From assembly GCA_964036195.1 (NCBI GenBank), contig OZ038459.1, positions 11,095,206-11,159,205 on the forward strand: a stretch of DNA of 64,000 nucleotides. The letters run 5' to 3'. Position 1 is the stretch's first letter. Each line of letters starts with the position of its first letter. The stretch comes from Sphaerolaimus hirsutus. Lineage: Eukaryota > Nematoda > Chromadorea > Monhysterida > Sphaerolaimidae. Below the pieces are notes generated by a model. That model was not told the DNA's origin. It saw only the letters and a list, made by a program, of their open reading frames with translations, and ran no database searches. Shown here piece after piece: positions 21,901 to 24,900 of the stretch. A program made the translations under genes and the position numbers.

Positions 21901-24900
21901 GATGTTTAAAAAAAAAACCCATTTCGGACGTCATGTTTAAAAAAAACATCGGCCAACCCTAGGGATGGCACTTGATTTTTTTCAACTGATAAAAAAACCT
22001 ATTTAAAAAATCACAGGGTGGAAACTGAATGTTTTTTTAAACCAAACCATTTTTTTTTGTAAAATACACATACGCGCAATTTCACATACATTAATGTTAA
22101 CAGAAAATAAGTTGACATAAAGTGGATATTTTTGACAAAAATCACCACTTAAATGCTATCCCATTGCTCTACAGCCATTATGTGGCTTTATACAACATCA
22201 CAAAGTACTGGCAATTGTCTGATATACCTGTATATGTTGACCCATAACCATATTTGGGAGCTTTAAAAAACTTTTTATTTGAAAAAATGTTGCTGTTTAA
22301 GTAAAAAACAGGGTCGTTGAAACATTGTTTGGCCATCCCTAGTCAGAACTATACCTGGGAGCTCTTAAAAAATTTCTGTTGAAAAAACCCCGTTCTTTAA
22401 AACCAGTTCGTTGTAAAAAACTACTACTTTTTTCCATCCCAAGGCTAGATAATTACACATGTATGTAACTACGCGATTGAACTTTGCGGATGGCCAGGCG
22501 CACTCTGAAAGTGGCGATTCTAACTTGGCCAGACACCATATTGATCGGTGCGTCTGCGCGGCAGCGGCGGTTGTCGCGTGCATCTGCCTGCTGCGTGTAG
22601 CATGGGGCCGCGGCTGCATGCACTGGCCGGCGGCGGTTGCGCACCACCGGTGTGTCTGCGCTGGTGCGGTGCAGTGCGCGGGACTGGGCACTGGTGCATG
22701 GGCTGCGCTGTGCTGGCTCACTGAGCATTCTTTATGTCTAGCCTTGGCCTGTTTAACTCTCACATCTAGCCAGTGGTGCGTGTGTGTTGATTGCGAGGCT
22801 CATGTGAAATGCCGCTGAGCAGTAAACTGAGTCATGCTTCATTCGGTGATCGATACTAAATAAGTGGGGCCAGTTCCGCGAGTGGAGAAGTGAGAATTAA
22901 AATGCAGCGGAGTGAAATTACTTACCGTATATACTCGAATAATTCCCCCGCCTTGAATAATCCCACCCCCTTTGAAAAATTCTCCCTTGTAGACGAGTGT
23001 GGAAAGAATTATTCCCCCTCGAATAATCCCCCCCCCCTTAGACATAGAAGTTCCCCCCCCCCAGAAGTTTTTGCATCTAATTTGATCAAATATTGCATAT
23101 TAGTCTGTAAATAAAGCATATTTCATGAAATCAGTTAATGGAAACATGCTTAAAATTTTCAACGAATTTATTGTTCCCTCTTTGAATAATTCCCCCTCTG
23201 GAATATTCCCCCTCTGGAATATTCCCCCCTCAAAAAAGTCTGACGAAAAAATAATTTCCGGGGGATTATTCGAGTATATACGGTATTAAATTTGAAATGC
23301 GGATCGTGGAAATGCGATTATAAATTAATGAAAGTAGTAAATAATGGGTCATAAAATCCACGCAACACGGTTTCACCCTTTCTAAATAAAATTTTAAAAA
23401 AATCACCTTGCCTCTCAGAGTCTGCTGGACAAGCACCTGATCGCCAAGGCAGCCAACCCCGAGTCCAAGGTGTTCTACCTGAAGATGAAGGGAGACTACT
23501 TCCGCTATTTGGCAGAGGTCGCATCTGGTGATCAGCGCACAGGTCTGATTTGGGTGAACTTTTTGGGGCATAGGTTTTAACCTCTTTCTGAGTTTTTCTC
23601 TTTTTTTTTGAGAGTTTGGTGGTAAATTTAAAGTCTAACGAATGCACATAAATCGTGTAGCCGTAGTGGACAACTCGCAAAAGGCCTACCAAGAAGCTTT
23701 CGACATTGCCAAGGAAAAAATGCAGCCGACCCACCCCATTCGGCTGGGACTGGCGCTCAACTTTTCCGTATTTTATTATGAGATCCTGAACGCGCCCGAC
23801 AAGGCGTGCCAGCTGGCCAAACAGGTGCCTTTGCCGTGGGCGGGCTGTGTGTTCTTCAAGTAGGCGGAGCTTGACTGCTGGCTGCGTCTGCTATCTGCTA
23901 CTTTGTCGTTGTTCACAACGTGTTTCTGTAGCAGTTTCGGCTAATGGGCCCACACACGCTAGTTGATATCGACACCGATACAAAGCTTGCGGACGGGTGG
24001 AAGAACAACGTTCAAACGCAAACTTTGAATTAGGAACAGAACCAGTTGACACTTGGTGTCGATGTCAACTAGCGTGTGTGGGGCCAATCTACACTTGTAA
24101 TCATGTGAACTGTCGATTCGAGCAGACCAGTCGCAACCAGCCTCGCCCGCCCGCTTGTGCGCGCACACTCCGCCCACTTTAGGTCAGACTTACTGACGCG
24201 CGCGCGCTCTCGTAGGCGTGGCGGACAACTCGCAGTCGGCCTACTCTGAGGCGTTCGAGATGGCCAAGGTGCAAATGCAGCCAACCCACCCCATTCGGCT
24301 GGGGCTGGCGCTCAATTATAGCGTGTTTTTCTATGAGATTCAGAACTCGCCCGATCGGGCGTGCCAGCTAGCCAAGCAGGTGACTCGCTGCTGGCCCCTG
24401 GGGGCAGTCTCGAGCCCTGTAAAGTGTAAAATCAAGTGTCAAATGTCATGTAAAATTATGTCAATCAAAACGAAAAGAAAAGATTTTATTGCTGATCTTT
24501 GCATGACAATTGATACTGCCTGACACTTTGCATTGCAATTGACAAATCTGTATGACATTTGTCATGACATTGACACTTGACATTACACTTTACAGGGCTC
24601 TGGACTGGCACCAGATGTCCAGTGAACGGCGAAAAGTGTGTCATTGTCATTCCTTTCGTCGCTCACTGCATGCCGTGTGCTTGACCTGCCGTGTGCTCAT
24701 AAAATTAATCAATACAACGGAAGTCATTGTAATTTTAGATCACATGTAATGGCTCACAATGTGTTAACTTTGTGTGCATTTTTCTGGAAACTGAAATGTT
24801 CAAGTGCACGGCTAACTAACAAAAAAATAACCCGCTTCACGATTTCACCAATTCGGTTGGGTCTGATTTGGGGATCAATATGGCTGCATTTGACCGATTG

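What the first reader, a model, noticed from the sequence alone, without database searches (positions are those of the whole stretch)
23661..24379. Mutually exclusive exon pair in 14-3-3, enforced by reading frame
Two exons of exactly 164 nt with identical phases encode alternative versions of residues 142-196. Both have intact frames and splice sites. Inclusion of both or neither shifts the frame. The phosphopeptide-groove core is identical, while surface and helix-start residues differ at about 13 of 55 positions, which suggests two isoforms with different partners or dimer behaviour. Drosophila 14-3-3 zeta is known to have alternative exons in its 3' half; whether they match this position is something I cannot verify. 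If they do not, this is an independent origin.
Basis: partly seen in the sequence, partly recalled or inferred. Interest (0 to 1): 0.85.

Follow-up and report, generated by a model that had tools for sequence, protein, structure and literature searches.

The report
Nematode 14-3-3 gene with either-or exon
A roundworm 14-3-3 gene carries two interchangeable copies of one exon, so it can probably make two versions of this signalling protein, much as the fruit fly seems to do at the same place, but through a duplication that probably happened separately.

Summary
Exons A (23661-23824) and B (24216-24379) are both 164 nt, share phases and AG/GT sites, and match at 42 of 55 residues. Skipping both or including both shifts the frame to an early stop. 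The gene is a zeta-type 14-3-3. Its genome (348 Mb) looks nematode: 56 nematode cuticle-collagen matches, no arthropod cuticle domain; mitochondrial genes on both strands suggest Enoplea. Two other 14-3-3 genes have the same lengths for exons 2-6 but one copy of this exon. Exon B appears constrained, not decaying. Mutually exclusive exons in 14-3-3zeta are well known in Drosophila (three copies), and a published 14-mer from that cluster can be read as the segment around residue 184 inside this exon, so the same exon was probably duplicated there. A-B synonymous divergence is moderate (dS 0.58), which favours an independent recurrence unless gene conversion hid the age. B has Ser184, the JNK site of human zeta; A has Ala. 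No fly-type docking pairing was found. The inter-exon intron folds into an exceptional hairpin, but a control undercuts the simple steric model. Expression was not testable. A good but ordinary parallel.

The parts
18941..26746 (+). 14-3-3 (zeta-type) gene, coding part; constant exons 18941-18991, 19170-19241, 19778-19954, 23419-23542, 25808-25903, 26675-26746
   Evidence: Spliced CDS reads through as a 251-aa 14-3-3; best PDB match 14-3-3 zeta 6nyb_C, E 9e-135
23661..23824 (+). alternative exon A, conservative copy (47 of 55 identical to 6nyb_C); Ala at human-zeta position 184
24216..24379 (+). alternative exon B, diverged copy (40 of 55 identical to 6nyb_C); Ser at position 184, Y174, F178, Q182
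23543..23660 (+). upstream intron, 118 nt; branch-point-like CTAAC about 21 nt before the exon
   Evidence: read; branch-point label is by eye
23825..24215 (+). inter-exon intron, 391 nt, folds as one long hairpin (-179.1 kcal/mol, z -8.5)
23836..23899 (+). 5' arm of the outer stem
   Evidence: (alignment with 24121-24177), pairing probabilities; stretch 23825-23942 has one match in the genome
24121..24177 (+). 3' arm of the outer stem
   Evidence: stretch 24090-24215 has one match in the genome
23945..24086 (.). short inverted-repeat transposon (MITE-like) at the tip of the hairpin; 39 other places among the 40 scored of 1927 candidates, 79-94% identical
   Evidence: the name MITE is my label
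24193..24197 (+). branch-point-like CTGAC of exon B, predicted buried (unpaired probability 0.02)
   Evidence: branch-point label is by eye
24398..24614 (.). second MITE-like inverted repeat just after exon B; 39 other places among the 40 scored of 1678 candidates, 77-86% identical

Best explanation
One zeta-type 14-3-3 gene of a nematode has a tandem duplication of its 164-nt exon encoding residues 142-196 (about helices F to early H, recalled). Splicing picks A or B; both or neither gives a premature stop, so only the two one-exon products can make full-length protein (shown from sequence). A stays close to other zetas; B has diverged but appears constrained (shown, with the limits given). 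B carries Ser-Pro at the JNK site 184 and A Ala-Pro, so the switch most likely changes how client release responds to stress-kinase signalling and which partners dock beside the groove (inferred). The duplication most likely arose inside the nematode lineage, separately from the fly cluster of the same exon (inferred). How the choice is made is not shown; the unusually stable hairpin of the inter-exon intron is a candidate for hindering A-to-B joining, with frame shift and mRNA surveillance as back-up.
For: Equal length, phase, splice sites, frame logic. Constraint: dN 0.156, dS 0.583, ratio 0.27; in 5000 neutral simulations of one copy at distance 0.29 (half the A-B dS), <=13 changes and no stop occurred in 0.06% (A was used as ancestor and all 13 differences were allotted to one copy; at distance 0.15 the share was 16%, so the result depends on the distance). 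Of 13 differences, 7 can be placed on B, 2 on A, 4 are ambiguous. The two other 14-3-3 genes have one such exon of 164 nt each. A-B synonymous difference 15 of 37 sites against 65 of 101 for exons 2, 3, 4 and 6 versus the paralogue (Fisher p 0.019). S184 is a JNK site in human zeta promoting client release, outside the pocket (review PMC6193947, passages). Inter-exon intron: end-to-end pairing z -5.1, the most extreme of 19 introns of the three genes, next -2.3; 1 of 294 random placements in the window at least as strong.
Against: No transcript data. Gene conversion between A and B could keep dS low and make the pair look young; A-B dS is not significantly below A-C145 (p 0.06) or B-C145 (p 0.17). 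The exon-protein tree disfavours A and B as sisters (AU p 0.002, but KH 0.053 and SH 0.068), in conflict with dS. In the fold control 4 of the 15 other introns examined (of 18; three longer than 1500 nt left out) have median 5'-site-to-branch-region distances of 7-23 steps, against 20 for the inter-exon intron, so collapse of the intron cannot by itself forbid splicing. Flanks of 1 of 3 other copies of the transposon pair almost as well (z -4.33 against -4.44), so the outer stem may be incidental.
Confidence: 0.78

Rival explanations
1. The pair is older than the gene duplication: the ancestor had A and B, and the two C145 genes kept only the B-type exon; A and B were later homogenised.
For: B and the C145 exon share Y174, F178 and the serine codon AGC (position 175) where A has TCC; the tree prefers B+C145 (AU p 0.80, against 0.002 for A+B; A+C145 is not excluded, p 0.28; bootstrap for B+C145 67); 0 of 120 data sets simulated under A+B gave as large a preference, though 56 of 120 preferred B+C145 by some amount.
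Against: A-B dS 0.58 is lower than B-C145 1.15 (p 0.17); the run of sites shared by B and C145 is not significant (P 0.076, or 0.135 with the serine codon counted once); no fossil of exon A in the C145 loci; dropping positions 174 and 178 cuts the preference from 6.9 to 4.0 log units.
Confidence: 0.25
2. Shared ecdysozoan ancestry: nematode A/B and the fly exon 5 cluster descend from one ancient pair.
For: Probably the same exon (14-mer in PMC4174434, passages).
Against: A-B synonymous sites are unsaturated; A and B share Asn at exon position 5 (human-zeta 144), absent from 6nyb_C, human zeta, human gamma and the C145 exon, though present in human epsilon. Only one variant taken to be from an insect could be compared, so this is a weak test. 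Odds raised slightly (0.08 to 0.10) on recheck, because the gene duplication itself is near saturation (dS 1.49) and gives no upper age.
Confidence: 0.1
3. Exon B is a non-functional or decaying copy.
For: More amino-acid change than A; no expression data; the neutral simulation is not excluded at a short distance of 0.15 (16%).
Against: Open frame, both splice sites, dN/dS 0.27, 0.06% at distance 0.29.
Confidence: 0.06

Closest known systems
Drosophila 14-3-3zeta (leonardo) exon 5 cluster, three mutually exclusive exons
   Same: Same gene family, probably the same exon, tandem duplicates, one chosen
   Different: Two copies, not three; probably a nematode; no pairing between inter-exon and downstream introns found, whereas the fly uses IE1/IE2 against IEa with the docking site downstream
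Dscam exon 17 (steric hindrance combined with RNA secondary structures; only its title was seen, as reference 139)
   Same: A structured intron near mutually exclusive exons
   Different: Here a structural effect is only predicted and a control weakens it
C. elegans mutually exclusive exons (unc-32, egl-15; PMC3585155, passages)
   Same: Nematode either-or exons; that paper names steric hindrance, U2/U12 incompatibility, regulators and surveillance as means of fidelity
   Different: Other genes, regulated by RNA-binding proteins; one search for a nematode 14-3-3 case listed 12 of 30 papers, none with such a title or abstract start (papers not read)

Membership tests
14-3-3 family (Pfam PF00244) | profile match over the curated cut-off | tested here: met
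   5 matches in this window (19769-19954, 23419-23541, A, B, 25802-25906), each marked over the cut-off
Mutually exclusive exon pair | tandem, homologous, same length and phase, intact sites | tested here: met
Mutually exclusive exon pair | both or neither not tolerated by frame | tested here: met
Mutually exclusive exon pair | transcripts contain exactly one copy | not testable with these tools
   no RNA data at hand
Drosophila 14-3-3zeta exon 5 cluster | same place in the protein | tested here: inconclusive
   14-mer of fly exon 5c quoted in PMC4174434 reads S-P-A-R in the one of three frames that fits, like residues 184-187; the whole fly exon was not compared
Drosophila 14-3-3zeta exon 5 cluster | docking site in the downstream intron pairing with inter-exon selectors | tested here: not met
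   M1-D1 96, M1-D2 26, M2-D1 53, M2-D2 8 of 100 shuffle pairs as strong (transposons and the GATATC repeat block left out); none of 15 inverted repeats joins the two introns. One genome only; gapped or G-U-rich helices could be missed
Drosophila 14-3-3zeta exon 5 cluster | common descent of the duplicates | tested here: inconclusive
   dS and one shared residue argue against; only one putative insect variant available

The most novel reading that the evidence does not exclude
Splice variants and gene copies interchange in this family: the A/B pair predates the 14-3-3 gene duplication, and the C145 genes are B-type isoforms set free as separate genes, while at the home locus A and B remain coupled by alternative splicing under an unusual intron-wide hairpin.
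Probability: 0.2. Interest if true: 0.55.

Novelty: new member of a known kind. Interest (0 to 1): 0.4.

Why it matters
If independent, it is a second case of evolution duplicating the same exon of the same hub protein and coupling the copies by exclusive splicing, which points to this segment as a favoured place for tuning 14-3-3. It gives a simple natural swap to test whether residue 184 and its neighbours set kinase-controlled client release.

Tried and rejected
Steric collapse: the inter-exon intron puts donor A about 20 steps from the exon B branch point (sampled range 12-31), but four other introns are similar or shorter, so I dropped it as sufficient cause. In one search the coordinates I gave for the exon A branch point were wrong (they do not cover CTAAC), so its exon A branch-point and distance lines are not used. 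Docking and selector pairing as in fly: not found; of ten segment pairs only M1-M2 (0 of 100 shuffles, the two ends of the inter-exon intron) and D1-D2 (2 of 100, both within the downstream intron) stood out. The conspicuous hairpin between the exons is a high-copy transposon, and so is the one after exon B; only the outer stem gave a single genome match (the tool warns that this does not prove rarity). Arthropod origin: rejected because Chitin_bind_4 gave 0 candidates (it rang in no control genome either, so the test has no positive control). Hairworm origin: among the 25 longest mitochondrial inverted repeats listed of 77 and of 59, the long ones are imperfect and the perfect ones are 20 nt or less of AT repeat, unlike the perfect repeats up to 284 bp in the abstract start of PMC6649704. 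Gene conversion tract of codons 34-39: suggestive only. Likeness of B to human gamma (Y174, Q182) is taken as recurrence of the same changes.

Not done: structure prediction of the isoforms, splice-site scoring with a genome-specific model, any search of other nematode genomes (none is offered).

Full report
What was checked. Exons A (23661-23824) and B (24216-24379) are each 164 nt; with the last base of the upstream exon both give 55 residues, 42 identical, and 131 of 164 bases identical. Sites are ..GTAG|CCG...CAG|GTGCCT (A) and ..GTAG|GCG...CAG|GTGACT (B). Exon skipping leads to a stop at 25846-25848 (counted by hand), joint inclusion to a stop at 24369-24371. The likeness stops 4 and 6 bases outside the exon. 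The gene runs from ATG 18941 to a stop after 26746, in exons of 51, 72, 177, 124, 164, 96 and 72 coding bases.

Gene and organism. The protein is a zeta-type 14-3-3: best of 125 PDB sequences matched is 6nyb_C, labelled 14-3-3 zeta; that it is an insect protein is my recollection, not in the output. The genome G000 has 348 Mb in 762 contigs. A scan with Pfam 14-3-3 gave 13 exon matches from 16 candidates: 5 in this gene and 8 in two genes on contig C145. These two have identical proteins, exons 2-6 of the same lengths (72, 177, 124, 164, 96), one copy of this exon, and lie in opposite orientation, 82-98% identical in seven aligned pieces. No separate epsilon-type gene showed in that scan. 56 matches to the nematode cuticle-collagen N-terminus (91 candidates) and none to the arthropod cuticle domain indicate a nematode; that these families mark those groups is recalled. 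The mitochondrial contig (14,754 bp, 83% A+T) has nad1 and nad2 on the strand opposite to the other ten protein genes that I recognised (labels by eye). Coding on both strands is common in Enoplea, single-strand in Chromadorea (PMC9115964, passages), so class Enoplea is likely; the species is unknown.

Selection and history. A-B: dN 0.156, dS 0.583 (15 of 37 synonymous sites). A-C145: dS 1.44; B-C145: 1.15; exons 2, 3, 4 and 6 against C145: 1.49. The A-B proportion is lower than the rest-of-gene one (p 0.019), not significantly lower than A-C145 (p 0.06) or B-C145 (p 0.17). Of 13 differences seven can be placed on B, two on A, four are ambiguous. Neutral simulations make the observed restraint improbable at distance 0.29 (0.06% of 5000) but not at 0.15 (16%). 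Against a simple picture, the protein tree of seven sequences prefers B with the C145 exon over A with B by 6.9 log units (for A+B: AU p 0.002, KH 0.053, SH 0.068; A+C145 not excluded, AU 0.28; bootstrap of B+C145 67), and 0 of 120 simulated sets reach this. Part of it comes from shared Y174 and F178, and the serine codon 175 is AGC in both but TCC in A. I leave the order of exon and gene duplication open. Independence from the fly rests mainly on the moderate A-B dS; conversion between A and B could hide a greater age, and the gene duplication is too saturated to date.

Mechanism. Full-length protein requires exactly one exon. For the choice itself three ideas were tested. (i) Fly-type docking: no pairing between inter-exon and downstream introns beyond shuffles (transposon and repeat stretches left out), and none of 15 inverted repeats in the region joins them. 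(ii) Inter-exon hairpin: the whole intron folds at -179.1 kcal/mol, z -8.5, 0 of 100 shuffles, partly because of a transposon at its tip; its two ends, each with one genome match, pair with z -4.4 to -5.1, the most extreme of 19 introns; without the transposon z is -4.8, 0 of 200 shuffles. In 294 random placements in the window one was at least as strong; flanks of 1 of 3 other transposon copies were nearly so. (iii) Whether this collapses the intron below a splicing minimum: 16 of 19 introns were folded and four of the other 15 were similarly or more collapsed, so it cannot suffice. The hairpin stays a candidate, not an explanation. In yeast, pairing that brings the two sites closer is described as enabling splicing (PMC7404189, passages), so even the sign of the effect is open.

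Function. The segment holds human-zeta residues 140-194 (numbering from the match to 1a37_A). The phosphate-binding residues K49, R56, K120, R127 and the dimer-interface site S58 lie elsewhere; S184 is inside, is phosphorylated by JNK in human zeta, and its phosphorylation stimulates release of Bad and FOXO3A (PMC6193947, passages). B has Ser184-Pro, A has Ala184-Pro, C145 has Ala. Human paralogues show the same alternative: zeta and epsilon Ser, gamma Ala. The inference that exon choice sets JNK responsiveness is mine and untested. [quoted passage not shown]

Known or new. Fly 14-3-3zeta exclusive exons with competing RNA structures are described in PMC6071210, PMC4174434, PMC3923563 and PMC6027157 (passages). 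I did not see the primary work (Yang et al. 2011) in the search listings and did not look it up; I know it only through these papers and recollection. Five searches that could have shown a nematode case (listing 2 of 2, 13 of 13, 4 of 4, 12 of 30 and 15 of 30 papers) showed none by title or start of abstract; most listed papers were not opened. Verdict: a real and probably functional pair, a new nematode member of a known kind.

Noticed in passing
G000 C145:25500-34500 and 213000-221500 (L009, L010): Two further 14-3-3 genes in opposite orientation, identical proteins, 82-98% identical DNA pieces: a recent inverted duplication or an assembly duplicate.
   Followed up: partly
window 23945-24086 and 24398-24614: Two different high-copy short inverted-repeat transposons sit after the two alternative exons.
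   Followed up: yes
L012 7699-8887 (mitochondrial contig): The cob gene seems split over two overlapping frames: assembly error or frameshift.
   Followed up: no
L012 about 4000-5400: The same blocks recur several times between atp6 and cox3 of the mitochondrial contig (seen).
   Followed up: no
window 8019-11197: LDL-receptor class A repeats followed by a trypsin-like start on the + strand: perhaps one modular serine protease gene.
   Followed up: partly
window 34095-34973, - strand: Short-chain dehydrogenase gene in at least two exons.
   Followed up: no
window 38692-39192, + strand: Weak protein kinase match just under the Pfam cut-off (31.4 vs 31.7 bits).
   Followed up: no
window 60088-61848: Repetitive long open frames on both strands, such as GVPKGCHF units on the minus strand.
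   Followed up: no
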